A stretch of DNA of 64,000 nt, taken from the NCBI GenBank assembly GCA_018402545.1, contig JAGYIL010000001.1, positions 1,612,001 through 1,676,000 on the forward strand, written 5' to 3'. A model generated the notes under the pieces. It was not told where the DNA came from, did not search any database, and saw only the letters and a list, made by a program, of their open reading frames with translations. The translations under genes were made by a program, and so were the position numbers. The DNA is from Saccharospirillum sp. Lineage in GTDB: Bacteria; Pseudomonadota; Gammaproteobacteria; Pseudomonadales; Natronospirillaceae. This document shows, piece after piece, positions 15,408 through 54,476 of the stretch. Every line of letters begins with the position of its first letter. Position 1 is the stretch's first letter.

Positions 15408-15534
15408 GTGCCAGGCACCGGATGTGCTTATCGGGTGGTGCGACACATCGCTCGGCGTGAATCCTTCCATGGAGCCTAGGCTTCGGCATCCATGCCTCAG
15501 ACTACCCCGGATAAGCACATCCGGCACCTGGCAC
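15408..15534. repeat. Palindromic intergenic element, copy A
   Basis: 28-base outer arms at 15408-15435 and 15507-15534 are complementary with two mismatches. The centre carries the family core TCCATGGAGCCTAGG followed by a short inner palindrome. It sits between the alpha-E and deaminase genes. The arms include CCGGATGTGCTTATC, which is unlike the arms of the other copies. Confidence 0.85.
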
Positions 15535-15593
15535 TTGGTGTTGTGGAACTTTGAAATTGAAATGACTGACTCTCAGAGTTATCGGAGTGCACT

Positions 15594-16604
15594 ATGACTT
15601 CAGAAATAATCGACCTTGCGGCCAAGGCACCCAAAGTTGAACTGCACTTGCACATTGAAGGTAGCCTGGAGCCGGAGCTGATGTTTGCTTTAGCCAAGCG
15701 CAATGGCATTACCTTGCCCTATGCCGACATTGAGGCAGTGCGTGAAGCTTATCAGTTTGGCAATCTGCAGGAATTTCTGGATCTGTATTACCAGGGTATG
15801 TCGGTGTTGCAAACCGAAGAAGATTTTTACGACCTTACTTGGGCCTATCTGAAACGAATTCACGCCGACAACGTCGTTCATACCGAAGTGATGTTTGACC
15901 CCCAGGCACATCTGGAGCGAGGCATTGCCTTTGACACTGTGCTTAATGGCATCGAAAGGGCGCTGCAGCAGGGTGAGCGGGAGTTGGGTATCAGCTATCG
16001 GCTGATCATGTCGTTTCTGCGGCATCTATCCGAAGAAAGCGCTTTTGAGACTCTGGCCATTGCGGAGCCGTATCTGGAACGGATACATGCTGTAGGACTG
16101 GATTCCGGCGAGAAAGGGCACCCGCCAGAGAAGTTTGAGCGTGTGTTTGCGCGCTGCCGGGAACTGGGGTTGGTCATCACCGTCCATGCCGGTGAAGAGG
16201 GGCCGCCCGAGTATGTCTGGCAGGCCATCGACCAGCTTAAAGTGGACCGTATCGACCATGGCAACCGCGCCATGGAAGACCCTGCGCTGGTGCAGGCGCT
16301 GGTAGATCGTGGTTATACACTGACGGTTTGCCCGCTATCGAATCACAAGCTGCAGGTTATTGATGATCTGAAGCAGCACCCGATAACTGCCATGTTGGCT
16401 GCCGGTTTGAAAGCCACCATCAACTCTGACGATCCGGCCTATTTTGGCGGTTATGTGAACGACAATTACTGTGCACTGATTGACCACGGCCTGATTGACC
16501 GGGACCAATTGCTGACGCTCCTGGAAAATGGATTTGACGGTGCCTGGATTGACGACACCACCCGGGCAGCGCACAAGGCCAGGCTGGCTCAGGTATTTGC
16601 CTGA
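15594..16604 (+). CDS. Adenine/adenosine deaminase family protein (adenine deaminase type 2 likely)
   Basis: A 336-residue zinc hydrolase of the adenosine deaminase superfamily. Metal and catalytic residues are present: His18 and His20 (LHLHIEGS), His198 and Glu201 ([12 protein letters not shown]), His222 (RIDHGNRA), and Asp279/Asp280 ([11 protein letters not shown]). The [12 protein letters not shown] form and the [10 protein letters not shown] stretch resemble the type 2 adenine deaminases described from Pseudomonas, so the substrate is more likely adenine (giving hypoxanthine and ammonia) than adenosine. The distinction rests on recalled family features, not a computed tree. CGGAG precedes the ATG. 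The gene stands alone between a repeat element and a GMC oxidoreductase gene 77 bases downstream. Confidence 0.88.
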
Positions 16605-16681
16605 CTGTCCTACTATCGTTCGATGGTAATGGCGTTTGTGAAGGTTAAGCTGGGCGCTACCAAAGCGCCCGGAGAGCGTTC

Positions 16682-18343
16682 ATGTCACAGTCTTTAGCGG
16701 CCGATGCATTCGACTACATCGTTGTTGGCGCCGGCACCGCCGGTTGCCTGCTGGCCAATCGGCTCAGTGCGAACCCCGATAACCGGGTATTGCTGATCGA
16801 AGCCGGTGGTCGGGACAATTATCACTGGATACACATTCCCGTTGGATATCTCTACTGCATCAATAACCCCCGAACTGACTGGCTCTATCGTACCGAGCCG
16901 GACCAGGGGCTGAACGGTCGCGCACTGATTTACCCGCGCGGCAAGACGCTGGGTGGGTGCTCCAGCATCAACGGCATGATTTATATGCGCGGTCAGGCCC
17001 GGGATTACGATGGCTGGGCCCGGGCGGTTGGGGATGATGCCTGGCGCTGGGAAAATTGCCTGCCGGATTTTATGCGTCACGAAAACCATTACCGGCTAGA
17101 CCCTGGTGCCGATGCGGATGAACAGCATCGTGACTTTCATGGCCATGGCGGTGAGTGGCGTATTGAAAAACAGCGGCTTAAATGGCCAGTACTGGATGAT
17201 TTTGCGGCCGCTATGGTACAGGCTGGTATTCCCTACACCCGCGATTTCAATCGCGGCGACAATGAAGGGGTCGACTATTTCGAGGTTAACCAGCGAAAGG
17301 GGTGGCGCTGGAACACGGCCAAGGCGTTTTTGCGCAATATTCGACACCGTTCCAATCTGAGTGTCTGGGATTCGGCGCAGGTGTTGAAGTTGAATGTCGA
17401 GTCCGGCGTTGACGGTCAGCCACAATGCATAGGGGTAACGCTCGAACGGGACCGGCAGACCCGTTCTGTGCAGGCCCGACGCGAAGTCGTGTTGTCGGCC
17501 GGGGCGATCGGCTCGCCACAGTTGTTGCAGGTATCGGGTATTGGCCCTGCCATTCTGTCTCAGTCTCACGGCATCGAGGTGGTGAAGGATCTGCCCGGTG
17601 TCGGCGAAAACCTTCAGGATCACCTGCAGATCCGTTCGGTCTACCGGGTCAGCGGCGCCAAAACATTGAACACCATGGCCAGGTCCTGGCCGGGCAAGGC
17701 GCGCATCGGGTTAGAGTACCTGTTTACCCGCTCCGGTCCGATGAGTATGGCGCCCTCGCAACTGGGTGCTTTTACCCGCAGCTCGCCTGACTATAAGCAT
17801 CCCAATCTCGAATACCATGTTCAGCCGCTGAGTCTCGATGCCTTTGGCCAGCCGCTGCACCCGTACCCGGCGATCACTGCCAGCGTCTGCAACCTCAACC
17901 CGACCAGTAGGGGCCGGGTTCAAATTCGCAGCAAGGATGCACGCAAGGCCCCTGGCATCGCTCCCAATTACCTGAGTTCAGAGGAAGACCGCAAAGTGGC
18001 CGCCGATTCGCTGCGGGTAACCCGTCGCATTGCATCCCAGCCAGCCTTTGCCAAATACAAGCCGCAGGAAATTAAGCCCGGTGTTGAGTATCAGACCGAT
18101 GATGAGCTGGTAAAACTGGCCGGTGACATTGGCACCACTATTTTTCATCCGGTTGGTACCACTAAAATGGGCGCTGTCGATGACCCGATGGCCGTGGTGG
18201 ATGCTCACCTGAACGTATTGGGTGTTAATGGCTTGCGCGTGGTGGATGCGGGCATCATGCCCACCATTGTCAGCGGCAACACCAACTCACCGACACTGAT
18301 GATTGCAGAAAAAGCCGCCTCCTGGATTCTGGCCGGTGAGTAG
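16682..18343 (+). CDS. GMC-family FAD-dependent oxidoreductase (choline dehydrogenase-like)
   Basis: A 553-residue flavoprotein. The N-terminal FAD-binding motif is VVGAGTAGCLLANRLS, the GMC signature region includes PRGKTLGGCSSINGMIYMRG, and the catalytic histidine is in FHPVGTTKMG, with the closing motif GNTNSPTLMIAEKAA. GMC enzymes oxidise alcohols (choline, glucose, polyethylene glycol, aliphatic alcohols); the substrate is not evident. No betaine-aldehyde dehydrogenase or BetI-type gene is adjacent, so calling it BetA is not justified. A GGAG site precedes the ATG. Its stop is only five bases from the convergent MscS-type gene. A second GMC paralogue is at 46409-48028. Confidence 0.92.
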   Translation: MSQSLAADAFDYIVVGAGTAGCLLANRLSANPDNRVLLIEAGGRDNYHWIHIPVGYLYCINNPRTDWLYRTEPDQGLNGRALIYPRGKTLGGCSSINGMIYMRGQARDYDGWARAVGDDAWRWENCLPDFMRHENHYRLDPGADADEQHRDFHGHGGEWRIEKQRLKWPVLDDFAAAMVQAGIPYTRDFNRGDNEGVDYFEVNQRKGWRWNTAKAFLRNIRHRSNLSVWDSAQVLKLNVESGVDGQPQCIGVTLERDRQTRSVQARREVVLSAGAIGSPQLLQVSGIGPAILSQSHGIEVVKDLPGVGENLQDHLQIRSVYRVSGAKTLNTMARSWPGKARIGLEYLFTRSGPMSMAPSQLGAFTRSSPDYKHPNLEYHVQPLSLDAFGQPLHPYPAITASVCNLNPTSRGRVQIRSKDARKAPGIAPNYLSSEEDRKVAADSLRVTRRIASQPAFAKYKPQEIKPGVEYQTDDELVKLAGDIGTTIFHPVGTTKMGAVDDPMAVVDAHLNVLGVNGLRVVDAGIMPTIVSGNTNSPTLMIAEKAASWILAGE

Positions 18344-18348
18344 TGATC

Positions 18349-20889
18349 TTACTGGTCTGTCTGGGGCGGCTGCCGGATGACCAGTTTGTCGAGGCCTTCG
18401 CTGTTGCGAAGATGGATGTCGATCTGCTGAAAGGCAATCTCGATACCCGCCAGTTTGAATTCCCGGTCGATGTAGCGGTTAATTTCGTCGATCACGGGGT
18501 TCCTGTCCTGCAGTTCCTTCACATGAATGCGTAATTCATGGTCCAGTGTGCTGGCCCCGAAATTAAGAAACAGAACCTGGGGTTCCGGATCATCCAGCAC
18601 TCGGTGGTTTGCCTTGGCGGCACTGAGTAATAGTGCTCGTGTTTTATCAAGGTCTGACCCGTAGGCAACGCCAACCCGGACGATGACCCGGGTGACGGTA
18701 TCGGTTAGCGACCAGTTGATGAGCTGATCGGTAACAAATGTTTTGTTGGGAACGATGATGTCTTTGCGATCAAAATCGGTAATGGTAGTGGCGCGAATGC
18801 GAATCTGCCGGACCACGCCTGATAAATCACCCAGGGTTACGATATCGCCGATGCGTATCGGCCGTTCGAACAGCAGAATCAGCCCGGAGACGAAGTTGGC
18901 AAAAATCTCCTGCAAACCAAAGCCAAGGCCGACACTGAGTGCGGCCACCAGCCACTGTAGTTTGTCCCAGCTGACGCCCAGGCTCGACAGTGCCAGTACC
19001 AGGCCAATACCGGTAATGATGTAGTTGAACAGGGTGGTCATGGCATAGGCGCTGCCTTGCCGCAAACTGAGCCGGGAAAGCACCAGCATCTCCAGCAGGC
19101 CGGGCAGGTTGGCAGCAAGAAACAGTGACAGCGAGACAATAAAGAAGAATGAAGCCAGATCCAGCAGGCTCATGCTGCCCGGGCTTTCAGCGCTGCCGTA
19201 CTGCCAGATGACCAGTGAGTCGAGATAGCCGAACACCCCCACCAGGTCAGCCCATACCCAATACAGCAGGCCGCCAAAGCCAGTCAGCAGCAGGAAACGA
19301 ACCAGGCGCTGGGTTTGTTGCCGCACTTGCCGCAATTCCGCCGTGGTATCGGGCAGCGGCTCCTGAATTTTGTCCGGATCTTTGGCGCGTTGGGCGTCGC
19401 GTTGTTCCCTTAGCAACTGGTTTTCAGCTTCCCGTTGCTGGCGCAGGCGGTTACTTGAGACTTCAATGGCCCGGCGTGCGCTGGCCTCCGCAATGACCCA
19501 GCCGCTGAGAACATAAAAGGTGGCCAGAAAGCGCCCGGTCAGTTGAAGGCTGGTGTAGTAATACCCCGACAACGTCAGCACCACCAGGCTCAGTGGTAGC
19601 AGCACCAGAACCAGATTGAGTACCCAGCGCACCCCGGCCGGGGCGAAACCGGGTGGTAGCTGTTTTAGCAGTACGCGGAAGTAATAGGCGACCAAAGCAC
19701 CTGCCACAATCAGGATGAGAGGCCCCAGCACGTCATTGCTCAACGTCGCACCCTGTTGAACGGCCAGCGTTAATACCGCACTGGTGGGTAGCAGCACCCA
19801 GGCAAAGCGACGAACAAAGGTGCGCAGCGTTTTTCGGGCGTGGTCCGGCCACTGAAAATCGACCTCGGCGATCTGTCCGGGCGCCAGGATGCTGCGCAAA
19901 AATTGCACGACGAACAAGCTCAGCGCAATGGCGGTCAGGGCCGGGCCCAGCACCAGAGTGTCGGTTGCCTGAGTGCCTGAGAGCAGGTTCCCGATGGCCA
20001 GCAAAGCCAGGCTGGCGGGTGCTGTAATCGCCGCAGTCAATGCCAGCGCCACCAGTGTGGACCAGGGGCTGGAGTTCGTCGTTTCTGCGTCCGATGTTGG
20101 CTCTGCCCGGGGTGCTGATAGGTAGAAGACGGCAGTACCCGTTTTTAACGTTGTTGCCAGTGCCGTTTTCAAACGAGGCCGTAGCCAGTACAGGGCGATA
20201 GCCGGCAGAAACAGCAGCGTGCCCAGCCATTGCCAGAGCGACAGGTCACCCGGCGTCAGGCTGACGGAGAACTGGGCAGGCAGGCGGATAAGTTGATCCA
20301 CCAAAGCCCCTGGCGCGGTGGTGAACCAACCGAGGCCGATGGCCGGGTTGCTCGGTATCCAGAACAGCTGTTCAATAATGCTGGAGCGAACCCGGTCAGC
20401 CGTCGCTGTAAGCTCTTGCTGGGCCTGTTGCAGGCTTACCGCAGTCACTACCAACTCCTGTAAGTGGTCCTGCAATTCAGACAGTCGCAAGTCGGCCGGG
20501 TAGTCACTTGGGTTGTCCTGTATCTCCCGTTGTTGCTGGCTCACAGTAAACTGTCTCAGTCGCGCATCGGCGATCAGGTCAGAAAGCCCGGGGTCGAAAT
20601 CGAAATTGGGCAGGTTGGTGTTTTGTTCCTGCAGCACGCGAAACACCTGACCGCTGCCTCTCAGGGCAACGATATGCTCATTCAATGCGGCTTCATTGGT
20701 CAGCAATCGGGCATGCTGTCGTTGAACGGAACTCAGCCGCTGGTTCAACTGGTTGGTCTGCGTGCCTAGCGAGTCCAGCGTTTCCTGGATGCTGGCATTG
20801 GTCGTGTACTCAGCCAATACCGACGGGCTGAGCACTAAACTCAGGGTGAGCAGCCAAAGCCCTGTGCTGTAACCTAATTGCTTGAGCAT
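18349..20889 (-). CDS. Large MscS-family mechanosensitive channel (MscK-like)
   Basis: An 846-residue inner-membrane protein. It has a signal peptide ending near SVLAEYTT, a periplasmic coiled-coil-like region (about 30-165), multiple membrane helices, and a C-terminal MscS core with GLGFGLQEIFANFVSGLIL and RPIRIGDIVTLGDLSG. The pore-lining and beta-domain region is intact. Such proteins open under membrane tension to release solutes after osmotic downshock, which suits a marine or saline bacterium. MscK of E. coli is larger, so this is an MscK-like family member rather than an orthologue. The gene is alone on its strand, convergent with the GMC gene and divergent from the acetyltransferase gene. 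Confidence 0.92.
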   Translation of the reverse strand: MLKQLGYSTGLWLLTLSLVLSPSVLAEYTTNASIQETLDSLGTQTNQLNQRLSSVQRQHARLLTNEAALNEHIVALRGSGQVFRVLQEQNTNLPNFDFDPGLSDLIADARLRQFTVSQQQREIQDNPSDYPADLRLSELQDHLQELVVTAVSLQQAQQELTATADRVRSSIIEQLFWIPSNPAIGLGWFTTAPGALVDQLIRLPAQFSVSLTPGDLSLWQWLGTLLFLPAIALYWLRPRLKTALATTLKTGTAVFYLSAPRAEPTSDAETTNSSPWSTLVALALTAAITAPASLALLAIGNLLSGTQATDTLVLGPALTAIALSLFVVQFLRSILAPGQIAEVDFQWPDHARKTLRTFVRRFAWVLLPTSAVLTLAVQQGATLSNDVLGPLILIVAGALVAYYFRVLLKQLPPGFAPAGVRWVLNLVLVLLPLSLVVLTLSGYYYTSLQLTGRFLATFYVLSGWVIAEASARRAIEVSSNRLRQQREAENQLLREQRDAQRAKDPDKIQEPLPDTTAELRQVRQQTQRLVRFLLLTGFGGLLYWVWADLVGVFGYLDSLVIWQYGSAESPGSMSLLDLASFFFIVSLSLFLAANLPGLLEMLVLSRLSLRQGSAYAMTTLFNYIITGIGLVLALSSLGVSWDKLQWLVAALSVGLGFGLQEIFANFVSGLILLFERPIRIGDIVTLGDLSGVVRQIRIRATTITDFDRKDIIVPNKTFVTDQLINWSLTDTVTRVIVRVGVAYGSDLDKTRALLLSAAKANHRVLDDPEPQVLFLNFGASTLDHELRIHVKELQDRNPVIDEINRYIDREFKLAGIEIAFQQIDIHLRNSEGLDKLVIRQPPQTDQ

Positions 20890-21017
20890 TTCCCGGTCCG
20901 AGCCAAATGAGATACGAATCAGTCTATCGTGGTTTCGGTGAGGTTGTCTGCTTTACCGATGTTTCAAACCGGATTGCGCAGCCGGGGTCAGCGCGCAATA
21001 ATCATCCCAACGAGACC

Positions 21018-21542
21018 ATGACAGCGAGCCACACAATGACCGTTAGTGAACCGCGGACAAGACCCGATTTTCTGATTCGGGTCGATGACCTGACCGGACC
21101 CGAAATAGCCCGGTTACTGGAAGAGCATCTGGCGGACATGAACGCCACCTCTCCCCCGGAAAGCAAGCATGCGCTGGATCTGGATGGTCTTAAGCAACCG
21201 GATGTCACCTTCTGGACGCTTTGGGCAACAAACAGCGACGGGCAGGGCGAACAGCTGGCCGGGTGCTGTGCCCTGAAGCGACTGACGGCGGATCATGGCG
21301 AAATCAAATCCATGCGCACAGCAACGGCCTTTCGGCGCCAGGGCGTGGCCCAGCGTTTACTGCAGCATCTTCTGGACCAGGCGAAAGTTCAGAACCTGAC
21401 CCAACTGAGCCTGGAAACCGGCTCCATGGACTATTTCGCAGCGGCCCGGGCACTCTATAGTCGCTTCGGCTTCGAAGCGTGCCCGCCCTTTGGCGACTAT
21501 GTTGAAGACCCAAACAGTGTTTTTATGACGCGGCTTGTTTAG
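21018..21542 (+). CDS. GNAT-family N-acetyltransferase
   Basis: About 174 residues from the ATG at 21018. The acetyl-CoA binding motif is seen as RRQGVAQRLLQHLLDQA, followed by LSLETGSMDYFAAARALY and FGFEACPPFGDYVEDP, the arrangement of small GNAT enzymes resembling YsnE/PhnO types. The acceptor is not known. Start choice is uncertain: the frame extends upstream to 20907, but the region before 21018 is not conserved-looking, and another ATG is at 21033. It is divergent from the MscS-type gene and followed by a palindromic repeat element. Confidence 0.85.
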   Translation: MTASHTMTVSEPRTRPDFLIRVDDLTGPEIARLLEEHLADMNATSPPESKHALDLDGLKQPDVTFWTLWATNSDGQGEQLAGCCALKRLTADHGEIKSMRTATAFRRQGVAQRLLQHLLDQAKVQNLTQLSLETGSMDYFAAARALYSRFGFEACPPFGDYVEDPNSVFMTRLV

Positions 21543-21577
21543 ATCGGTGGCTTGGTTGGCCTGGGTGCCTCTCTTTC

Positions 21578-21691
21578 GTGTTCGGCCACCGGGTAGACCT
21601 ATCCGGGGTCGGCGTAGATCCGTCCATGGAGCCTAGGCCGCAGCATCCATGCTGCGGACTCCCCCGTATAGGTCTACCCGGCAGCCGACAC
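21578..21691. repeat. Palindromic intergenic element, copy B
   Basis: Outer arms at 21578-21608 and 21661-21691 are complementary apart from a few mismatches. The centre holds TCCATGGAGCCTAGG and a perfect inner palindrome, CCGCAGCAT-CC-ATGCTGCGG. The arms include CCGGGTAGACCTAT. It lies between the GNAT and GFA-family genes. Confidence 0.88.
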
Positions 21692-21743
21692 TTGATTAGG
21701 TGGTTAAACTAAGTTGTAACGAAATAAAAACAAGAGGTTCAAA

Positions 21744-22166
21744 ATGACTAATGCATTAAATGCCGTCTCTGGTGGTTGTCTTTGCGGTGCAGTTCGTTTT
21801 GCGGTCAACGGGCCGGTGTCGGCTTTTCACCTGTGTCATTGCGACCGATGCCGGCATTCAACCGGGTCGGCTTTTGCCGCTAATTTGTTTACCGTGCCGG
21901 AAGCCATTACCTGGGAGCAGGGTGAGGATCAGATCAAACGGTTTGAATTGCCGACAGCCAAACACTGGACGCGGCAGTTCTGTGCGACCTGCGGGTCTGC
22001 GCTGCCCTATGTGAACCGCAGCGGTAAGTTTCTGGTGGTACCCGCCGGTAGCCTTGATGGGGACCCGGCGGTGACGCCGGACGATCGCATTTTCTGGTCG
22101 GAGCGTCCGCATTGGGTCGACGCTGTCGAGGAGTCACCGGCTTTTGATCGGTACCCGACTCGCTGA
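21744..22166 (+). CDS. GFA-family (Mss4-like, CENP-V/GFA domain) zinc protein
   Basis: A 140-residue protein of the glutathione-dependent formaldehyde-activating enzyme fold. The expected zinc-binding cysteines are present: Cys12 and Cys14 (CLCG), Cys31, Cys33 and Cys36 (CHCDRC), and Cys80 and Cys83 (CATCGS). Very few members have a proven activity, so formaldehyde handling should not be assumed. AAGAGG precedes the ATG. It is a single gene flanked on both sides by palindromic repeat elements (copies B and C). Confidence 0.9.
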   Translation: MTNALNAVSGGCLCGAVRFAVNGPVSAFHLCHCDRCRHSTGSAFAANLFTVPEAITWEQGEDQIKRFELPTAKHWTRQFCATCGSALPYVNRSGKFLVVPAGSLDGDPAVTPDDRIFWSERPHWVDAVEESPAFDRYPTR

Positions 22167-22226
22167 ATTAACTTAGCCAGGTGGGTTATTACTCCAGTTT
22201 TGGAGTTCGCTGAGTTGACTAGCGGC

Positions 22227-22329
22227 GGTTACCTGGGGTGCCCCTGTGGGGTAGTCCGCAGCAAGGACGCTGCGGTCTAGGCTCCATGGATGGATCTACG
22301 CCGACCCCACAGGGGCGCCCCAGGTGGCC
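22227..22329. repeat. Palindromic intergenic element, copy C (inverted orientation)
   Basis: Arms at 22227-22251 and 22305-22329, with the core in the opposite orientation to copies A, B, E and F (TCTAGGCTCCATGGATGGAT). The arm sequences, including their mismatches, match those of copy F at 54374-54476. Similarity between C and F continues into the flanks (for example TAGTTCGCTGA-like sequence). Confidence 0.88.
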
Positions 22330-22376
22330 GACGCGGGCGAGTGCCAACATAGCCGACCCGAACTCCAAGGCCTGAG

Positions 22377-25524: not shown

Positions 25525-25690
25525 ATGTAATGCATTACATTCAGTAACAGAGTTTTCTGCATAAAGTGATAGCCCGCAATGGCGCATTTCCTGTCGAATA
25601 TAAGCCATTTTACGTGGTTTCTCAAAATAAACTGATGGCGAAGGTGTTGACCTCGCCAAATCTCTCTGATTGAATGTAATGCATTACATT
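25525..25690. promoter_or_regulatory. Two GC-centred operator palindromes, 149 bp apart
   Basis: ATGTAATGCATTACAT at 25525-25540 and AATGTAATGCATTACATT at 25673-25690 are perfect palindromes sharing the same 16 bases, centre to centre 149 bp. They fill the 301-base divergent region between the CytR-like regulator and the sugar operon. The AATGCATT centre is reminiscent of CytR half-sites. The spacing would allow looping. The downstream copy ends 31 bases before the operon start codon. No other gene was seen in this gap. Confidence 0.75.
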
Positions 25691-31663: not shown

Positions 31664-31841
31664 GGACTGTCGGGTACGTCTACTGGAGGCACGCCATAAA
31701 CCCGTCCATGGGGGCTCGGAGACAGGATATGAATCCCATCCATGGGATCCACCCTTCGGGCTCGCTTCGCTCATGCTAAAACGCTCCTGGCGTTTTAGTC
31801 CATGCGGTCTAACGGCCCCCAGTAGACGCACCCAACAGTCC
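31664..31841. repeat. Palindromic intergenic element, copy D (long, diverged centre)
   Basis: Arms at 31664-31689 and 31816-31841 are complementary with a few mismatches and include CGTCTACTGG. The centre is longer than in other copies and only partly related: it keeps a CCGTCCATGG-like stretch and adds an extra hairpin, CTAAAACGC-TCCTG-GCGTTTTAG. It fills most of the 346-base gap between the sugar-operon terminator and the M42 gene; no gene is credible there. Confidence 0.75.
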
Positions 31842-36584: not shown

Positions 36585-36704
36585 TTGAGCTGAGGTCGGC
36601 CCCGGTGCCGACCAAACCCTGTCGGCCGGTGCCATGAAGTGAAGCACTGGCCGGGGGCTTCTATCACCAATTCAGCTTCGGAGTTGACTGGGTGGCTTTG
36701 GTCC

Positions 36705-36819
36705 GCGTCGGCATACCGGTTATGCCTCTGCAGGGTCGGCGTAAATCCATCCATGGAGCCTAGACCGCAGCATCCATGCTGCGGACTACCCTTGCAGAGG
36801 CATAACCGGCATCCGACGC
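36705..36819. repeat. Palindromic intergenic element, copy E (inside an operon)
   Basis: Arms at 36705-36735 and 36789-36819 include ACCGGTTATGCCTCTGCA and its complement. The centre carries TCCATGGAGCCTAGACCG and the inner palindrome of copy B. It lies in the 284-base gap between the binding-protein and first permease genes of the peptide transporter, so the transcript would cross it. Confidence 0.88.
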
Positions 36820-36868
36820 TCGCTTCGTGCGTCCTCCGAAACTTGAGTTACAGCAGGCAGGGTGAATC

Positions 36869-45938: not shown

Positions 45939-46051
45939 GGTCTTCTGGAGGGTTTAAACGCCGGCATTTGCCCGAGGTTACCGCCGGTTCGGAAGCAGGC
46001 GTAAAATTTGCTAAACTTCGGGTTAGCGGGTCCAGTCAGCCGAGGCCAGTC

Positions 46052-46372: not shown

Positions 46373-46408
46373 GCGTTTTTACACTGCCGGAGCAACCATC
46401 GGCTTGCG

Positions 46409-48028
46409 TTACTCCCCCTTGCGAATCCAGTCGGCGGCCCGTTCAGCCAACACCTGAGTGGGCGCATTGGTATTACCGCTGATCAGCGTCGGCATCACGC
46501 TGGCGTCTACCACTCTTAACCCCGCAACCCCCTTCACCCGAAACCGGGCATCAACCACCGCACGGTCATCTACGCCCATACGGCAAGTGCCCACGGGATG
46601 GTAGATGGTATCGGCCCGCGCTCTGATGGATTCGATCAGTGCCGCGTCAGAGGCGTTGTCTTCAATATACAGAGGCTTGCCGCGCAGGGCTGACAGTTCC
46701 GGGCGCAGCACGATGTCCCGGCTGAGCTTCACCCCGGCAAGCAGCGTCGCCAGGTCCCGCTCATCGCTCAGGTAGCGCGGGTTGATCAGTGGCGGTGTAA
46801 GCGGGTGTTGGTCAGCCAGCCGGACCTCTCCCCGGGAGTACGGTTGCAGGGCGCAGGCATGCAGGCTAAACCCCTGGCCATAATGCAGTGTGCGATTATG
46901 GTCATCAGCCAGAGCGACAAGAAAATGCAATTGAATGTCGGGTTGGGTCAGGTCAGGGCTGGATTTTACAAAGCCACCCGATTCCGCAACGTTACTGGTG
47001 ATGATCCCTCGGCGGCGAAACAGGAAGTTAGGCAGGGCGGCGGCTACCCGGGCGATACCGGTCAGCCCGTATCCGATCAGATGCGGCGACGGGCTGCGCC
47101 AGGCGCTGATGTAGTCGAGGTGGTCCTGGAGGTTCTGGCCGACCCCGGGGGAATGAACCTGGGTTTCAATGCCCCGCGCCTGCAAGTGATCACCCGGACC
47201 GACGCCGGAAAGCATCAGCAGTTGAGGCGACTGGAAGGTGCCAGCAGAAAGAATAACCTCGCGGCGGGCACTGAACAGGCGCTGTGGGCCGTTGCCGGTC
47301 TGCACCCAGGCACCGCTGGCCCGGCCACCGTTCAATTCCAGCCGGAACGCATGACTGTTGGTGAGCACGTTCAGGTTGGGGCGGGACATGGCGGGAAACA
47401 GGTAAGCGCGGGCCGCACTGCAGCGCAGGCCGTCTCGCTGGGTTACCTGATAGCGGCCAACCCCTTCCTGATCCCCCTGATTGAAATCGAAATTCAACCG
47501 ATATCCTGCTCCGGCTGCTGCCCGGTGAAAGGCGTCGACAACGGGGTTGTGATAACGAATATCATCAACGCCCAGCGGTCCGCCCGCTCCATGTGCTTCA
47601 CTGGCACCTCGCTGGTTGCCCTCGTTGTGAATGAACCAGGGCAGCATCTGTTCCCAACTGAAGTCGGTCAGCCCCAGGCTGGCCCAGTTATCGTAGTCCT
47701 GAGGGTGCCCGCGGGTATAGATCATCGCATTGATGGCACTGCTGCCGCCCAGACCCCGCCCTCTGGGCTGAAAGGTCTGTCGATGTTTCAGTTCTGGTTG
47801 AGGTGTGGTTGAGAAATTCCAGTTATGGGCATAGCCCGGCACAGTTGCAGCTGTGCCCAGCGGTACCTGTATCAGGGGGCTGCGGCCACCTCCGCCAGCT
47901 TCTATTAGCAACACACGGCAGTCCGGATCTTCCGACAGGCGTGCCGCCAATACGCAACCGGCCGAGCCGCCGCCAATGATCAGGTAGTCGACGTCGTATT
48001 CGGCCTGGAGATTTCTTTGCCGGGTCAT
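46409..48028 (-). CDS. GMC-family FAD-dependent oxidoreductase (choline dehydrogenase-like)
   Basis: A 539-residue flavoprotein. The FAD motif is IIGGGSAGCVLAARLSED, the GMC signature includes PRGRGLGGSSAINAMIYTRG, the catalytic histidine is in YHPVGTCRMG, and the end motif is GNTNAPTQVLAERAA. It is the second GMC paralogue in the window, clearly different from that at 16682. Substrates may be long-chain or short alcohols; no aldehyde dehydrogenase is adjacent. It is convergent with the small basic protein gene and divergent from the second cspA. Confidence 0.92.
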   Translation of the reverse strand: MTRQRNLQAEYDVDYLIIGGGSAGCVLAARLSEDPDCRVLLIEAGGGGRSPLIQVPLGTAATVPGYAHNWNFSTTPQPELKHRQTFQPRGRGLGGSSAINAMIYTRGHPQDYDNWASLGLTDFSWEQMLPWFIHNEGNQRGASEAHGAGGPLGVDDIRYHNPVVDAFHRAAAGAGYRLNFDFNQGDQEGVGRYQVTQRDGLRCSAARAYLFPAMSRPNLNVLTNSHAFRLELNGGRASGAWVQTGNGPQRLFSARREVILSAGTFQSPQLLMLSGVGPGDHLQARGIETQVHSPGVGQNLQDHLDYISAWRSPSPHLIGYGLTGIARVAAALPNFLFRRRGIITSNVAESGGFVKSSPDLTQPDIQLHFLVALADDHNRTLHYGQGFSLHACALQPYSRGEVRLADQHPLTPPLINPRYLSDERDLATLLAGVKLSRDIVLRPELSALRGKPLYIEDNASDAALIESIRARADTIYHPVGTCRMGVDDRAVVDARFRVKGVAGLRVVDASVMPTLISGNTNAPTQVLAERAADWIRKGE

Positions 48029-48508
48029 CGGGGTGTGGCTCCGCTGGGTTGAACTGACACGCTATCCGGTCGGTCTGTGTTTGGCAATTAACGTGGCTGG
48101 CTCGTGATATTTCGACAAAAATTGCGACGGCCCCGGCTCGACATCCCGCAAAACAGGGCGGAATGAAAAATGTTTTGCGGTCTGTTCTTGGGCAATAATC
48201 ACATAGGATTCAAGGTGTTAGTTAAACCTTGAAATCTCTTTATAAGCCCGCCATAGCGGGCCCATCCCATTATTTATTGACAACATTTAGCAGTCGGTTA
48301 CCATGATTACAGCTTGAAAGTACGTCTTACTATTTATGAATGTTAGCTCGATGTGAACGCTGTATGTTCGGTTGTCAGTTGAACTCGTCGGTTATCCATA
48401 AGTATTAGCAACACTGAAAAGCAAAAAGGTTCCCATGGAACGGCTGGCCGCTAACACAGGTCACCGTTCGGGAACGACACATTACTTGTAAATTGATAGG
48501 TTATACTT
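48029..48508. promoter_or_regulatory. 480-base intergenic region and probable long leader of the second cold-shock gene
   Basis: No gene was found. Several inverted repeats are visible: TTCAAGG with its complement at 48209-48233, GCCCGC-CCATA-type hairpin GCCCGC/GCGGGC at 48246-48261, and GTTCCC...GGAACGG near 48430 pairing imperfectly with CCGTTCGGGAAC near 48466. Just before the start codon, 48486-48500 repeats the leader of the first cold-shock gene. Long structured leaders are known for cspA, where they switch fold with temperature; that role here is inference. Confidence 0.45.
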
Positions 48509-48715
48509 ATGTCTACGACTACCGGCACTGTTAAGTGGTTCAACGAAACCAAGGGTTTTGGCTTCATCGAGCAGGAAAATGGCCCAGACGTTTTTGCTCA
48601 TTTCAGCGCCATCTCTGGTTCTGGCTTCAAGACTCTGGTTGAAGGCCAGAAAGTAGAATTCACCATTACCCAGGGCCAGAAAGGTCCTCAGGCAGAGAAC
48701 ATCGTCGTTCTTTGA
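48509..48715 (+). CDS. Cold-shock domain protein, CspA family (second copy)
   Basis: A 68-residue cold-shock protein, the same length as the one at 2268 and differing at a minority of positions (for example [19 protein letters not shown] here). The RNP1-like and RNP2-like motifs are intact. It shares the 15-base leader with the first copy. It is monocistronic, with a terminator starting 81 bases downstream. Frames extending on the opposite strand across this gene are spurious. Confidence 0.95.
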
Positions 48716-48796
48716 TTCCGGTGAATTCCTATGCTCAGTGCCGTTTGCTCTAATGAGCCAGGCGGTATAGGGCGAGTCGCTGTAGAGCGACACTAC

Positions 48797-48831
48797 AAAA
48801 AAGGTGCTGTCTTCGGGCAGTGCCTTTTTTT
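48797..48831 (+). terminator. Rho-independent terminator after the second cold-shock gene
   Basis: An extended stem with two G-T pairs closes on a TTCG tetraloop at 48812-48815 and runs into seven T. The A-tract on the other side would allow use on either strand. Confidence 0.88.
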
Positions 48832-49409
48832 GTGTCTTTTTTCGGGTGACTCGTTGTTTGAGTAAGCCCGGCTGCACTCTTCGGATGCCCACAGCAACGG
48901 CGTTCAGGGTACAGACTAGGTTTTTCGAATCGGTCGCTGGGCATCTGTTTTCTGTCGTTTTCCGTCATGCTGAAAGCAGTGTCGTTCTTGCAAAATGCAG
49001 AAAACAATGTTTACTGTAATAAGAGAATGCTGACCTGTTCTTGTGCTGGCCGGGGTTGCGCTGAAGGGGAGTATTTGGGCATTGCCCCAAAGTTGAACAT
49101 CATGCACCATAAGCCTGCACTTTATTTGACCGCAACTGACTGCAACCTGTCCCATTCAGCGTTGTAATAACAAAAAAACTGGTCAAAAAGCCTGCGGTTA
49201 AAAAAAAGCGACAAATCTAGACAGTCGGCAAAGTATTTGCATACGCTTAGAGCACGATTGATTGGTCGGGTTGTCCGGTTTCGTGAACCTGTGTTGACTG
49301 ACACCCTACCGGGGTGCTTGTCACTCGGAGTGTCATCAGGGATTTCGTCGACAGAACCTGCTGGGCAGGCGCATGTTAAAGCAGTCAAAACAATACAGGA
49401 GATGCCACG
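48832..49409 (+). other. Long intergenic region ahead of the Pot-type operon
   Basis: No credible gene in these 578 bases. Short frames on both strands overlap the terminator or each other. The last 20 bases hold AGGAGAT at 49398-49404, the ribosome-binding site of the ATPase gene. The region probably contains the promoter of the transporter operon, but no boxes could be assigned with confidence. Confidence 0.5.
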
Positions 49410-50510
49410 TTGGAGAACGAAAATCCCGGTGAAGTATTCGTAGCCTTTGATCGTGTTCAAAAGAGTTATGACGGGGAGGAGCTGGTTGTCAAGGACCTGA
49501 ACCTTGCCATCAGCAAGGGCGAGTTTCTGACCATGCTGGGCCCCTCCGGTTCCGGCAAGACCACCTGCCTGATGATGCTGGCGGGTTTTGAAACAGCGAC
49601 CTACGGTGACATTCTTCTCGATGGCCAGGCAATTAATAACATCCCTCCTCACAAGCGCGGCATTGGCATGGTTTTTCAGAACTATGCCCTGTTCCCACAC
49701 ATGACCATTGGCGAAAACCTGTCGTTCCCGCTAGAAGTGCGTGGCATGGACAAGAGTGAGCGTGAAGCGAAAGTAATGAACGCTTTATCGATGGTGCAGA
49801 TGGAAGCCTTTGCGGGTCGGCGCCCGGCACAGCTGTCTGGTGGCCAACAACAGCGAGTGGCATTGGCGCGAGCGCTGGTGTTCGAACCTGAACTGGTGCT
49901 CATGGATGAACCGCTCGGTGCGCTGGATAAAAATCTGCGTGAGCACATGCAATATGAGATCAAACACCTGCATGAGAAGCTGGGAATTACCGTCGTTTAT
50001 GTAACTCACGACCAGACCGAAGCGCTGACCATGTCTGACCGCATTGCCGTCTTTGATGATGGCCGCATTCAGCAACTGGCATCCCCGGCTGACCTGTACG
50101 AGCGACCGGAAAACGCCTTTGTCGCTCAATTTATTGGTGAGAATAATCGCATGCAGGGGGAGGTCGAAAGCATAGAGGGAGACTTCGCTCAGGTGCGTCT
50201 CGACGATGGCTCAATGGTGAAAGCCCTTAAGGTCTGCGTTAACGAGGTAGGTGACAAGACCACCCTGTCGTTGCGCCCCGAACGCGCGTTGGTGGTTAAG
50301 GGCGATGCTCAGTACGCCAACATGTTTGATGCCACGGTCAAGGAATTGATTTATCTGGGTGATCATATTCGCTCCAGAGTCAGTGTCTGTGGCCGTGACG
50401 ATTTTATTATGAAGGTACCCAATTCTTCCGATCATCATTCCATGCGAGTAGGGCAGTCCGTTCGCATAGGCTGGTCGGAGCATGATTGCCGCGCATTGGA
50501 TGCAACCTGA
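49410..50510 (+). CDS. Spermidine/putrescine-type ABC transporter ATP-binding protein (PotA-like)
   Basis: A 366-residue ATPase. Walker A is GPSGSGKTTCLMML, the Q-loop is VFQNYALFPHMT, the signature is LSGGQQQRVALARAL and Walker B is LMDEPLGALDK. A C-terminal TOBE-type regulatory domain follows from about residue 285. The start is TTG at 49410 with a strong AGGAGAT eight bases upstream. It is the first gene of an operon with binding protein and two permeases. The class imports polyamines, opines or similar compounds; the ligand here is open. Confidence 0.93.
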   Translation: MENENPGEVFVAFDRVQKSYDGEELVVKDLNLAISKGEFLTMLGPSGSGKTTCLMMLAGFETATYGDILLDGQAINNIPPHKRGIGMVFQNYALFPHMTIGENLSFPLEVRGMDKSEREAKVMNALSMVQMEAFAGRRPAQLSGGQQQRVALARALVFEPELVLMDEPLGALDKNLREHMQYEIKHLHEKLGITVVYVTHDQTEALTMSDRIAVFDDGRIQQLASPADLYERPENAFVAQFIGENNRMQGEVESIEGDFAQVRLDDGSMVKALKVCVNEVGDKTTLSLRPERALVVKGDAQYANMFDATVKELIYLGDHIRSRVSVCGRDDFIMKVPNSSDHHSMRVGQSVRIGWSEHDCRALDAT

Positions 50511-50636
50511 GTGCGAGGTGAATGATTCGCTGAACTCTGGGTCGGATGCTTCAGTTTCCGGCATCTGTCCAGTAGGTTTGGTGGCAAAAAGCGGCCAGGC
50601 AGTGTTGCCTGGTTTATATCCAAAGAGGAGTTACCC

Positions 50637-51746
50637 ATGAAACAGCCGATGCTTAGAATGCTTGGAGTCAGCAGCGCGATCAGCCTGTTGGCTGTGACAG
50701 CGGTACACGCAGAAGACCCCGTTGAACTGACCATTGTCTCCTGGGGTGGTGCATACACGGAAAGTCAGGTTCGCGCCTACCATGAGCCCTACGTTGCCGT
50801 TAAAGATCACATCACGATCACCAACGATGACGGTTCAGCCAACGCCCTGGCAGGTCTGCGGTCGCAGAGCATGGCCGGTAACGTAACCTGGGATCTGGTT
50901 GACATGTTGCCATCGGATGCGCAGCTTGCCTGCGACGAAGGCATCATTATGCCGATCGATGCAGATGAAATGCTGGCACCAGCGCCCGACGGCACGCCGG
51001 CCAGCGAAGATTTCCTGCCGGGAAGCCTGGGTGAGTGTTTTATCCCGCAGATCGTTTATTCAACTGTTGTAACCTACAACACGGAAATGTTCCCGGAAGA
51101 CAACCAGCCGGGCAGTATTGATGACTTTTTCAATACCGACGATTTCCCTGGCCGTCGTGCCATTCAGGACCGGCCTGCCGGTAACCTGGAGTGGGCACTG
51201 TTTGCCGATGGCGTAGACCCTGATGACATTTACGACGTGCTGGCAACACCGGAAGGTGTCGATCGTGCCTTTGCCAAGCTCGATACCATTAAAGATAACC
51301 TGGTGTTCTGGACTGAAGGTGCACAATCTCCACAATTGCTGGCCGATAAGGAAGTTGCCTTTTCGACTGGTTATAACGGCCGGATTTTCAACGCCGCCGA
51401 AGTCGAAGGTCAGCCCTTTGATATCATCTGGGATGGCCAGATTGTTGAGTGGGACGGTTGGGTAATCCCTTATGGCCCGAACCAGGAAGAAGTGCTTGAG
51501 TACGTTTACTGGGCGACAGATACACAACGTCTGGCAGACCAGGCCAAGTACATTTCCTACGGCCCGGCCCGTGCTTCTTCAGCGCCACTGGTAAGTGAAC
51601 ACGCTGATCTGGGTATCGATATGCGTCCGCATATGCCGACCAACCCGCAAAACTACGAAACGCCCATCGTGCTGGATAACGATTTCTGGACCGATTACGG
51701 CGATGAATTGCGGGAGCGGTTCTCCAACTGGATGTTGCGTGGTTAA
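50637..51746 (+). CDS. Spermidine/putrescine-type ABC transporter substrate-binding protein (PotD-like)
   Basis: A 369-residue protein with a signal peptide cleaved near AVHAEDP. The mature start ELTIVSWGGAYTESQVRAYH is typical of SBP_bac_8/PotD-like proteins, and WDLVDMLPSDAQLACDEGII follows. AGAGGAG precedes the ATG. Between it and the permease gene are a terminator and a MITE-like repeat, so the binding protein and ATPase may be expressed more strongly than the permeases. Relatives bind polyamines, but also other cationic or amino-acid-derived ligands. Confidence 0.92.
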   Translation: MKQPMLRMLGVSSAISLLAVTAVHAEDPVELTIVSWGGAYTESQVRAYHEPYVAVKDHITITNDDGSANALAGLRSQSMAGNVTWDLVDMLPSDAQLACDEGIIMPIDADEMLAPAPDGTPASEDFLPGSLGECFIPQIVYSTVVTYNTEMFPEDNQPGSIDDFFNTDDFPGRRAIQDRPAGNLEWALFADGVDPDDIYDVLATPEGVDRAFAKLDTIKDNLVFWTEGAQSPQLLADKEVAFSTGYNGRIFNAAEVEGQPFDIIWDGQIVEWDGWVIPYGPNQEEVLEYVYWATDTQRLADQAKYISYGPARASSAPLVSEHADLGIDMRPHMPTNPQNYETPIVLDNDFWTDYGDELRERFSNWMLRG

Positions 51747-51763
51747 GCCACAGTGACTGACCC

Positions 51764-51803
51764 GCGAGCCGGATAACGCAATGCGTTGCCCGGCTCGCCT
51801 TTT
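51764..51803 (+). terminator. Strong hairpin/terminator after the binding-protein gene
   Basis: GCGAGCCGG at 51764-51772 pairs with CCGGCTCGC at 51790-51798, an inner ACGCA/TGCGT stem extends it, and CTTTT follows. It would limit read-through into the permease genes. Confidence 0.8.
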
Positions 51804-51810
51804 CAACCTT

Positions 51811-51979
51811 TTAACAGGTTGTTGAAAAAGGCGGCCTGCCTTTTTCAAAACACGAGAAGCGAAAATTGCTATTTCCGCTTCTCTCCCAAAATCAATGACT
51901 TAACAGTCATCGATTTTGCCGGAACATCCGTGTTCCGGTAGCTGGCGGCCGAAATTCTACGAATTTCAACAGCCTGCTA
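51811..51979. repeat. MITE-like repeat with terminal inverted repeats and three inner hairpins
   Basis: Ends TTAACAGGTTGTTGAAA (51811-51827) and TTTCAACAGCCTGCTAA (51963-51979) are inverted repeats with two mismatches. Inside are hairpins around GAGAAGCG, AATCAATGAC and CCGGAACA-TCCG-TGTTCCGG (51919-51938). A partial relative lies at 56212-56262. No transposase is present. It occupies most of the 410-base gap between the binding-protein and permease genes. Confidence 0.75.
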
Positions 51980-52156
51980 ACAACAGGCAAGAGTTATTCT
52001 AAACCAGGTTTCTTTCGCGGTAGAGCTGTCCTGTATGGCAACCCGTGCAAAGAATCCTGCTTCAGAGCAACTCGAGCAAGTGACCTCTGTACAGCCGTTT
52101 TAACAACAACGATAGCGGTGCAGTTAGAATCAGAACCAGGGTGAACAGGAGTGAGT

Positions 52157-53446
52157 ATGACCCAGTCAGACGGTACCCATAGCGGATCCGACGCCGGCCA
52201 TATGGTCAATGGACAGATGGTGACCGTTGACGGTACGCCGTTGAAAGCCAGCCTGAAACGGGCTGAGCGCAAGCGCACCCTCATTGCCTTTTTGCTGGTT
52301 GCGCCGCTTCTGACCTATTTGCTGATCTCCTTCATTTTCCCCATCGGGCAAATGATGTGGCGCAGTGTGGATAACCCCCAGGTTGTTACTACCTTGCCCA
52401 AAACCCTTGAAGCACTGGAAGACTGGGACGGAGAAGGCTTGCCCGATGAGCCTGTGTTCGAGGCGCTTGCAGAAGAACTGGCCATTGCCAGTGCAAACCG
52501 GACGGTCGGGCAACTGGCGGTTCGGCTGAATTATGAAATCAGCGCAGCCCGTGGCGCACTGATGAGAACGTCCCGGTCGGCGGAAGATTTCGAACCGCCC
52601 TATAAAGAGGCCTTTCTCGATGCACACCGGCTCTGGAACGACCCGGCGTTTTATCGAATCATAAAGCGGGAAGGCAATCCGCTGACGGCCTCCTATTACA
52701 TTGCGGCGTTTGATGGCACCTACAACGAAGACGGTGAGGTGGTGCTGCAAGATGAAAACCGCCGTATTTACACCGATTTGTTCATTCGAACCTTCGCCAT
52801 GAGTCTGGGCATTACACTGATCACTTTGTTGCTGGGTTTTCCGATCTCATTTCTGATGGCCAGTTTGCCCATGCGGCATGCCAACCTGCTGATGATCTTT
52901 GTCTTGTTGCCATTCTGGACATCCTTGCTGGTGCGTACCACGTCCTGGATCGTTCTGTTACAGCAGCAAGGGGTTATCAATGAATTGTTGATTGCGCTGG
53001 GCTTTATTGGCGACGATGGCCGGCTGGGCATGATCTACAACATGACCGGGACCATCATCGCGATGACCCACATTTTACTGCCCTTTATGGTGCTGCCACT
53101 CTACAGCGTGATGAAAACCATTCCGCCTTCCTACGTTCGGGCCGCGAAGAGTCTGGGTGCCACCCCCTGGACGGCGTTCTGGCGCGTCTACGTACCGCAG
53201 ACGCTGCCAGGTATCGGAGCAGGTGCTGTGCTGGTCTTTATTATTTCCATTGGTTACTACATTACGCCTGCGCTGGTGGGTGGTCAGTCTGGCCAAATGA
53301 TCTCCAATCTGATTGCGCATCATATGCAGACGTCTCTGAACTGGGGTCTGGCGGCAGCACTGGGGTCAGTATTGCTGGTCAGTGTGTTGATTCTCTATTG
53401 GGTCTATAACCGCCTGGTCGGTGCAGATTCCCTGAAGCTGGGTTGA
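52157..53446 (+). CDS. Spermidine/putrescine-type ABC transporter permease (PotB-like, large periplasmic insert)
   Basis: A 429-residue inner-membrane protein. After a first helix (AFLLVAPLLTYLLISFIFPI) there is an unusually long hydrophilic stretch, about residues 70-205, before the remaining helices and the EAA-type loop IPPSYVRAAKSLGATPWTAF. Usual PotB proteins are about 280-310 residues, so the insert is the main difference. The ATG at 52157 has AGGAG five bases before it; a GTG at 52151 overlaps that site. It lies 13 bases ahead of the PotC-like gene. Confidence 0.92.
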   Translation: MTQSDGTHSGSDAGHMVNGQMVTVDGTPLKASLKRAERKRTLIAFLLVAPLLTYLLISFIFPIGQMMWRSVDNPQVVTTLPKTLEALEDWDGEGLPDEPVFEALAEELAIASANRTVGQLAVRLNYEISAARGALMRTSRSAEDFEPPYKEAFLDAHRLWNDPAFYRIIKREGNPLTASYYIAAFDGTYNEDGEVVLQDENRRIYTDLFIRTFAMSLGITLITLLLGFPISFLMASLPMRHANLLMIFVLLPFWTSLLVRTTSWIVLLQQQGVINELLIALGFIGDDGRLGMIYNMTGTIIAMTHILLPFMVLPLYSVMKTIPPSYVRAAKSLGATPWTAFWRVYVPQTLPGIGAGAVLVFIISIGYYITPALVGGQSGQMISNLIAHHMQTSLNWGLAAALGSVLLVSVLILYWVYNRLVGADSLKLG

Positions 53447-53459
53447 AGGAGCGTTTATC

Positions 53460-54311
53460 ATGGCAGTACCAACGTATGCAGGCCCACTGGAAAGAATCTG
53501 GTATTACGCGTTTCGTGTCTTGTGCGGGCTCATTTTCTTTTTTCTGATTGCGCCCATTCTGATTATGGTGCCTCTCAGTTTTAACGTTGAGCCTTATTTC
53601 ACCTATACCCGGGAAATGCTGACATTCAATCCGGACGGTTTTTCACTGCGCTGGTATCGGGACTTGTTCTCGTCGGAATCCTGGATGACGTCGATTCAGA
53701 ACTCTTTGATTATCGGTGTCGCCTCCACCCTGATTGCGACGTTTCTGGGTACCCTGGCAGCCCTGGGTCTGTCCCGGTCCGAAATGCCATTTAAAGGCCT
53801 GATTATGGGCTTGCTGATCTCGCCAATGATTGTGCCGCTGATCATTTCCGCCGCGGGTATGTTCTTTTTCTATTCGAGCGTCGGCCTTGCCAATACGCTT
53901 CCCGGTGTCATTCTTGCGCACGCAGCGCTGGGCACGCCCTTTGTGGTAATCACCGTCACTGCAACCCTGGTGGGGTTTGATCACTCCCTTACTCGCGCCT
54001 CTGCTAGCCTGGGTGCCGGGGCAGGGCGTACGTTTTTCAAGATACAGATGCCACTGATTCTGCCGGGTGTGATTTCGGGTGGCTTGTTTGCCTTTATCAC
54101 CTCGTTCGATGAAATTGTCATTGTGCTGTTTCTGGCCGGGGTAGAGCAGAGAACCATTCCACGTGAAATGTGGTCGGGTATTCGCGAGCAGATCAGCCCG
54201 ACGATCCTCGCCGTGGCCTCCATTCTGGTCGCCTTCTCGATACTGCTGCTGACGACGGTGGAGGTGCTAAGGCGCCGCTCTGAAAGGTTGCGGGGCATGT
54301 CACCGGGGTGA
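53460..54311 (+). CDS. Spermidine/putrescine-type ABC transporter permease (PotC-like)
   Basis: A 283-residue inner-membrane protein with about six helices. It carries the PotC-type MVPLSFNVEPYFTY region and the EAA-type loop DHSLTRASASLGAGAGRTF. Length is normal. GAAGGAG precedes the ATG. It completes the transporter with the ATPase at 49410, binding protein at 50637 and permease at 52157. It is followed by palindromic element copy F. Confidence 0.94.
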   Translation: MAVPTYAGPLERIWYYAFRVLCGLIFFFLIAPILIMVPLSFNVEPYFTYTREMLTFNPDGFSLRWYRDLFSSESWMTSIQNSLIIGVASTLIATFLGTLAALGLSRSEMPFKGLIMGLLISPMIVPLIISAAGMFFFYSSVGLANTLPGVILAHAALGTPFVVITVTATLVGFDHSLTRASASLGAGAGRTFFKIQMPLILPGVISGGLFAFITSFDEIVIVLFLAGVEQRTIPREMWSGIREQISPTILAVASILVAFSILLLTTVEVLRRRSERLRGMSPG

Positions 54312-54373
54312 TCCGGTGATTTACTAACTCAAATTTCGGAGTTCGAGTCAGTTCAGTGGCATGAGTCCGCACC

Positions 54374-54476
54374 GGCCACCTGAGGCGCCCCTGTGGGGTC
54401 GGCGTAGATCCATCCGTGGAGCCTAGGCCGCAGCATCCCTGCTGCGGACTACCCCACAGGGGCACCCCAGGTAACC
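54374..54476. repeat. Palindromic intergenic element, copy F
   Basis: Arms at 54374-54398 and 54452-54476 include GGCGCCCCTGTGGGG. The centre carries GGAGCCTAGGCCGCAGC. It is nearly identical to copy C read in the opposite direction, including the same arm mismatches (GGCC versus GGTT at the outer ends). Confidence 0.88.

What the first reader, a model, noticed from the sequence alone, without database searches (positions are those of the whole stretch)
15408..54476. Family of six palindromic intergenic elements whose arms differ between copies but stay complementary within each copy
Copies A (15408-15534), B (21578-21691), C (22227-22329), D (31664-31841), E (36705-36819) and F (54374-54476) share a centre built on TCCATGGAGCCTAGG plus, in most, CCGCAGCAT-CC-ATGCTGCGG. 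The outer arms differ: GGATGTGCTTATC in A, GTAGACCTAT in B, GGCGCCCCTGTGG in C and F, CGTCTACTGG in D, GGTTATGCCTCTGCA in E. In each copy left and right arms still pair over about 25-31 bases. This is compensatory variation: either RNA or cruciform structure is selected, or one arm is repeatedly copied onto the other. REP/BIME-type repeats are known, but conserved centre with variable paired arms is unusual. No transposase or RAYT gene is in the window.
Basis: seen in the sequence. Interest (0 to 1): 0.85.

Follow-up and report, generated by a model that had tools for sequence, protein, structure and literature searches.

The report
Scattered palindromes carrying twin CsrA-type hairpins
The six look-alike palindromes belong to a family of at least 150 copies scattered through this marine bacterium's genome; read on one strand, most copies can fold into an RNA with two small loops of the kind bound by the regulator CsrA, held on a long stem whose sequence differs between copies but stays paired.

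Summary
A, B, C, E and F are strong members of one family and D is a diverged one. Compensatory changes far exceed shuffled and slid controls and also separate the same copies in two species. Predicted folds show two or more GGA loops on that strand in 94 of 108 copies examined, on the other strand in 0. Best reading: a high-copy interspersed RNA-encoding palindrome whose fold is kept up copy by copy, by constraint on one strand plus arm-to-arm copying; CsrA binding is inferred, not shown. It is not a REP/RAYT system, and no consistent target duplication was found. Unexplained: adjacent copies in this genome always face the same way (12 of 12), and mismatches are biased to one strand whatever the gene or replication direction, a bias not seen outside the genus.

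The parts
15408..15534 (-). Copy A (strand given is the RNA strand). Tip of hairpin A at 15485-15496, hairpin B at 15462-15473; carries an extra module near the base of hairpin B
   Evidence: (88.7 bits); orthologous copy in G001
21578..21691 (-). Copy B. Hairpin A 21638-21657, hairpin B 21619-21630
   Evidence: (144.2 bits); orthologous copy in G001 with two compensated arm pairs
22192..22376 (+). Hairpin A 22256-22275, hairpin B 22283-22294
   Evidence: 171.8 bits; terminal repeats 14 and 16 of 18; orthologous copy in G001
31664..31841 (-). Copy D, diverged member
   Evidence: 34.2 bits, filters off; no complete copy at this site in G001
31725..31801 (-). Hairpin-rich insert at the tip of hairpin A of copy D; same kind of insert in 8 of 108 aligned copies
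36670..36847 (-). Copy E with terminal repeats (12 and 16 of 18). Hairpin A 36765-36784, hairpin B 36746-36757
   Evidence: (160 bits); no complete copy at this site in G001
54328..54511 (-). Copy F with terminal repeats (17 and 11 of 18). Hairpin A 54428-54447, hairpin B 54409-54420
   Evidence: (164.2 bits); no complete copy at this site in G001

Best explanation
The six copies belong to a dispersed palindromic element, about 185 bp when both ends are kept, with at least 150 copies in this Saccharospirillum genome. Shown here: kinship by covariance models, strand-specific loops, covariation within the genome and between species, placement beside gene 3' ends. Inferred: when that strand is transcribed, the twin loops bind a CsrA/Rsm dimer, so copies act as dispersed CsrA sites or decoys. 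The external stem differs between copies yet stays paired because the fold is constrained on the RNA strand and because one arm is copied onto the other (template switching). Spread was by a non-autonomous mobile process whose enzyme was not found.
For: RF01731 matches elements of other genera full length on the strand opposite to R1 (L231 39.2 bits; L218 31.6 bits; cut-off 43). In G010 one copy scores 73.5 bits with R1 and 43.5 with RF01731, over the cut-off. Of 11 RF01731 matches in G000 (E<=0.1) five coincide with R1 copies and one with a motif hit, always on the opposite strand; 0 of 14 control genomes match. Predicted folds: two or more GGA loops on the RNA strand in 94 of 108 copies, other strand 0, reversed control 0. 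Without inserts, hairpin A reads ANGGA in 93 of 97 (N = U 43, G 30, A 20) and hairpin B in 105 of 106. GGA-to-GGA spacing 20 nt in 84 of 95. Published passages: RsmE binds ANGGAN hexaloops, a CsrA dimer bridges sites 10-63 nt apart, best above 18 (PMC7652899); TwoAYGGAY was proposed to bind CsrA (PMC4333381). Covariation. Residual stem mismatches are 85 G.U to 13 A.C counted on the RNA strand, 69 to 13 as inferred events.
Against: No expression or binding data. Window copies do not reach Rfam's cut-off and one Saccharospirillum copy gives no RF01731 match at E<=10. Neither strand is preferred relative to neighbouring genes, and the mismatch bias also holds where the RNA strand is antisense to both neighbours, so who transcribes it there is unknown; a promoter-like score is only slightly higher on the RNA side (7.66 vs 7.40, p 0.016). 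The bias is weaker in the terminal repeats (41 to 25) and absent in pooled copies of eight other genomes (23 to 19). Hairpin A is a stable 7-bp GC-rich stem, whereas most selected CsrA ligands have four or fewer contiguous pairs (passage).
Confidence: 0.6

Rival explanations
1. A selfish MITE/ERIC-like DNA palindrome without RNA function. Arm complementarity is made mechanically by template switching or arm-to-arm conversion at quasipalindromes, and the conserved loops are only inherited consensus.
For: Terminal repeats, high copy number, intergenic placement, random orientation. On the tree, transversion-type pair changes (64) are as common relative to their mismatch states (35) as transition-type ones (117 to 82), as copying predicts. 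Template switching is reported to homogenise arms and invert spacers (PMC8604942 passages; PMC8794818 abstract and Discussion).
Against: It does not predict ANGGA kept in 93 of 97 tips while N varies, nor GGA loops on one strand only, nor a mismatch bias tied to one element strand whatever the replication or gene direction. No consistent target duplication.
Confidence: 0.25
2. A 3' end element: transcription terminator or mRNA 3' stabiliser, selected as a hairpin in the host mRNA.
For: 99 of 108 copies border at least one gene 3' end, 9 lie between divergent genes.
Against: If the host mRNA were the selected molecule, the mismatch bias should reverse with gene direction; it does not (17:4 and 33:2). 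It does not explain the GGA loops.
Confidence: 0.08
3. A REP/BIME-type system moved by a RAYT transposase.
For: In the genus the four genomes at the 77-copy cap have a Y1 transposase and the two low-copy ones (14 and 6) have none. Adjacent copies have a fixed mutual orientation.
Against: The Y1 proteins of G000 and G001 are 27% identical. G000's is flanked by its own tandem repeats. Of six Y1-bearing stretches fetched from G000, G001, G003 and G004, five hold no R1 match and one holds a copy about 3 kb away. Outside the genus presence does not track copy number.
Confidence: 0.04

Closest known systems
TwoAYGGAY RNA motif (Rfam RF01731; table row seen in PMC2864571; CsrA proposal in PMC4333381)
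   Same: [quoted passage not shown] some copies are found by both models
   Different: Window copies fall below Rfam's cut-off; here it is a repeat of at least 150 copies with terminal inverted repeats, tip inserts and facing pairs
CsrB/RsmZ-type CsrA-antagonist small RNAs (PMC7652899 passages)
   Same: GGA motifs in hairpin loops, several per RNA
   Different: Dispersed short elements instead of one dedicated sRNA gene; binding not shown
ERIC, YPAL, Correia and other bacterial MITE-like repeats (PMC2229807, first of three parts read)
   Same: Under 200 bp, intergenic, terminal inverted repeats, long stem-loop
   Different: No consistent target duplication found; core is a TwoAYGGAY-type RNA
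REP/BIME with RAYT (PMC2817692 and PMC3733652 seen in search listings only)
   Same: High-copy extragenic palindromes with ordered mutual orientation
   Different: About 185 bp instead of 20-40 bp; not flanking the genome's RAYT

Membership tests
TwoAYGGAY (RF01731) | Two A-Y/N-GGA hairpin loops on one strand joined on an external stem | tested here: met
   94 of 108 copies on the RNA strand, 0 on the other; loop tallies
TwoAYGGAY (RF01731) | Rfam gathering score of 43 bits reached by the window copies | tested here: not met
   0 matches in the window; hence filed as relatives, not members
TwoAYGGAY (RF01731) | A copy of the same family found by R1 reaches the gathering score on the predicted strand | tested here: met
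   G010:C1:438389-438524, 43.5 bits; R1 73.5 bits on the opposite strand
CsrA/Rsm-binding RNA | ANGGAN loops in hairpins, two sites at bridging distance | tested here: met
   against passages
CsrA/Rsm-binding RNA | Binds CsrA | not testable with these tools
   csrA present in 38 of 38 genomes, so its presence says nothing
Bacterial MITE | Terminal inverted repeats | tested here: met
   140 places vs 6 control; both ends at least 13 of 18 in 35 of 108 copies, 56 with neither
Bacterial MITE | Target-site duplication | tested here: not met
   isolated 6-7 bp matches only, 1 of 35 and 2 of 14 copies; no consistent length
Bacterial MITE | Ends shared with an autonomous transposon | not tested
REP/BIME | Repeats of the same family flank the RAYT gene | tested here: not met

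The most novel reading that the evidence does not exclude
A genome-wide, self-spreading CsrA sponge: a mobile palindrome has seeded at least 150 twin CsrA sites, some copies gaining more by tip insertion of further GGA hairpins, beside gene 3' ends. Each copy's fold is kept working by arm-to-arm copying plus selection on one strand, so that free CsrA, or the stability of many mRNAs, depends on a repeat family instead of one dedicated small RNA.
Probability: 0.25. Interest if true: 0.88.

Novelty: new variant of a known kind. Interest (0 to 1): 0.64.

Why it matters
TwoAYGGAY was listed in 2010 as a probable RNA of unknown function. Here its relatives turn out to be a high-copy interspersed palindrome with a copy-specific, compensating external stem and CsrA-type loops. 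That recasts the motif as a repeat family and offers hundreds of natural replicates for asking how a paired stem survives mutation: by selection on RNA, by template switching, or both. If the loops bind CsrA, a repeat family would be acting on a global regulator. On print: 7 papers of the library hold the name TwoAYGGAY, 5 were listed and passages were read in two; those passages do not describe an interspersed repeat, and the listings showed no paper on this family. The other papers were not opened and subscription journals are not covered.

Tried and rejected
RAYT/REP origin: rejected. Fixed orientation relative to the upstream gene: the five strong window copies suggested it, but over 108 copies both strands are used alike (with a simple gene finder of my own). 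Host mRNA structure or replication strand as cause of the mismatch bias: rejected. Clean insertion with target duplication: not supported; D, E and F lack a complete copy in G001 but none leaves a clean empty site. Simple in-place inversion: 7 same-site pairs hold the element inverted in the other species, but their identities are 0.71-0.95 and they are not reciprocal best matches, so the two species mostly hold different copies there; differential loss from facing pairs is my guess. Plasmids and phages: one copy searched, no match. miRNA-like Rfam matches treated as noise.

Rows dropped before counts: one search kept 108 of the 150 aligned matches (weaker ones, nearly all antisense readings of the same elements, and two repeats of loci already held were dropped); these 108 are copies whose DNA I held, not all copies. 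One search kept 42 of 58 matches (weak or antisense 11, duplicates 5). One search used 41 of the 82 aligned matches. Of 14 ortholog pairs sent, L088/L118 could not be placed and L081/L120 aligned to another neighbouring element; both were left out, which added A, B and C.
Full report
OBSERVATION. A, B, C, E and F fold far better than shuffled sequence (z -7.7 to -10.0, 0 of 200 shuffles as good for each). D is a diverged member, 34.2 bits with covariance model R1 only when filters are off. Copy C is on the opposite strand to A, B, E and F.

SCALE AND ANATOMY. The window is G000:C1:1612001-1676000 of a 4.25 Mb genome. The core word has 239 places with up to 3 mismatches against 12 for the reversed control. 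R1, built from 22 copies, scores 150 copies, the cap, all at E 2.3e-24 or better. The unit ends in an 18-bp inverted repeat, CTCAAGTTTCGGAGTTCG (140 places vs 6). Both ends are recognisable in 35 of 108 aligned copies, one end in 17, neither in 56; 29 of the 35 are 182-188 bp long. By motif counts 92 of 108 cores are standard and 16 carry one of five modules, the commonest a hairpin insert of about 71 nt (8 copies). R1 matches 18 of 38 relatives at E<=0.001 and 39 of 145 genomes of the order at E<=1e-6.

COVARIATION IS REAL AND HAPPENS IN PLACE. On 22 copies 20 of 46 pairs have two-sided changes against 8.9 +/- 1.8 in shuffles, and 84 cells against 25.0 +/- 5.5, none of 500 shuffles as high. 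G001 is syntenic with the window over about 53 kb. Core plus stem identity is 0.897 against 0.786 for the outer parts of the element.

WHAT THE CORE IS. This recalled the TwoAYGGAY motif, and Rfam RF01731 then matched elements of other genera full length on exactly that strand: L231 39.2 bits, L218 31.6 bits, both below the cut-off of 43. In whole genomes RF01731 finds 11 places in G000 at E<=0.1, one over the cut-off; 18 of 38 relatives match, 8 over the cut-off, and 0 of 14 control genomes. Five of the 11 coincide with R1 copies and a sixth with a motif hit, always on the opposite strand; the other five, including the one over the cut-off, are not in the capped R1 list. In G010 one copy passes Rfam's cut-off (43.5) and scores 73.5 bits with R1. 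The window copies do not reach the cut-off, so I call them relatives. Seven RF01731-matched loci that I folded have long external stems, whose sequences differ between loci except in the similar pair L244/L245; six of the seven show two GGA loops on one strand, L248 none. In the class 16 of 274 genomes match at E<=1e-4, with only 9 candidates scored per genome; five genomes fill that cap.

CSRA-TYPE LOOPS. Predicted folds have two or more GGA hairpin loops on the RNA strand in 94 of 108 copies, on the other strand in 0, in reversed sequences in 0. Of hairpin A tips without inserts 93 of 97 read ANGGA with N = U 43, G 30, A 20; of hairpin B tips 105 of 106. The two GGAs are 20 nt apart in 84 of the 95 copies where the pattern was found. 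Passages of PMC7652899 say that RsmE binds ANGGAN hexaloops, that a CsrA dimer bridges sites 10-63 nt apart, best above 18, and also that most selected ligands have four or fewer contiguous pairs, which hairpin A exceeds. A passage of PMC4333381 already proposes CsrA binding for TwoAYGGAY. In the whole 64 kb only six hairpins have an ANGGAN loop on a perfect stem of 6 bp or more, 0.05 expected from 20 simulations: those of B, C, E and F on the RNA strand, and two stand-alone ones. Of 42 copies from eight other genomes, two of them of the same genus, 37 have two or more such hairpins on the RNA strand and none has two on the other, where six have one. csrA is present in 38 of 38 genomes, which is uninformative.

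HOW THE ARMS STAY PAIRED. Two signals. (1) On a tree of 108 copies, pair-to-pair changes are 117 transition-type and 64 transversion-type, against 82 transition-type and 35 other mismatch states: mismatches that cannot wobble are resolved as readily as those that can, as arm copying predicts. Template switching is reported to do this (PMC8604942 passages; PMC8794818 abstract and Discussion). The bias is the same whichever way the neighbouring genes run (17:4, 33:2, 25:4, 9:2) and on either replication strand (30:1, 27:6), so it belongs to the element. Against it: terminal repeats give only 41 to 25, and copies pooled from eight other genomes give 23 to 19, of which the two same-genus genomes give 10 to 3 and the others 13 to 16.

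PLACEMENT AND ARRANGEMENT. 99 of 108 copies border at least one gene 3' end and 9 lie between divergent genes; the RNA strand is in sense with the flanking gene in 69 and the other strand in 66, copies between convergent genes counting for both. In the 150-copy listing plus six neighbours seen in fetched loci, all 12 adjacent pairs (under 300 bp apart) have the same mutual orientation, with the RNA 5' ends facing each other. By my own reading of the R1 listings of other genomes (partial lists) 24 adjacent pairs agree, 6 junctions are same-orientation (G030, G015, G011), and none has the opposite facing; three partial matches on G001:C53 also stand in tandem. At seven sites the two species hold copies in opposite orientation that are not reciprocal best matches.

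VERDICT. A real, high-copy, interspersed TwoAYGGAY-type RNA palindrome with compensating arms. The RNA motif was known; its life as an interspersed repeat with in-place compensation was not seen in the passages and listings reached here. CsrA binding, transcription and the mobilising enzyme remain to be shown.

Noticed in passing
window 51919-51938 and 56213-56232, minus strand: Two identical stand-alone hairpins CCGGAAC-ACGGAT-GTTCCGG with a CsrA-type ANGGAN loop; the genome has 13 such places with up to 3 mismatches against 0 for the reversed control, and N varies while GGA is kept.
   Followed up: partly
G000:C1:1871362 (L145:1696-2139): The genome's only Y1 transposase (RAYT-like) found; it is flanked by its own tandem repeats of 142-149 bp containing GTAGGAAGCCAGTCC-type palindromes, unrelated to the element.
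   Followed up: partly
L019:1441-1669 against L122:1001-1158: The 71-nt hairpin insert is present in one species and absent in the other in otherwise near-identical orthologous copies, so tip modules come or go in place; the insert brings further GGA loops in some copies.
   Followed up: partly
seven G000/G001 ortholog sites, e.g. L073/L117, L067/L125: The same site holds a copy in opposite orientation in each species, starting at nearly the same base but mostly of different subtype.
   Followed up: partly
G030:C27:404760-405380 and G030:C22:165534-166083: In a genus of another family the element stands in tandem same-orientation triplets, unlike the facing pairs of Saccharospirillum.
   Followed up: no
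window 25525-25689: Long inverted repeat ATGTAATGCATTACAT... between divergent genes, operator-like, not related to the element.
   Followed up: no
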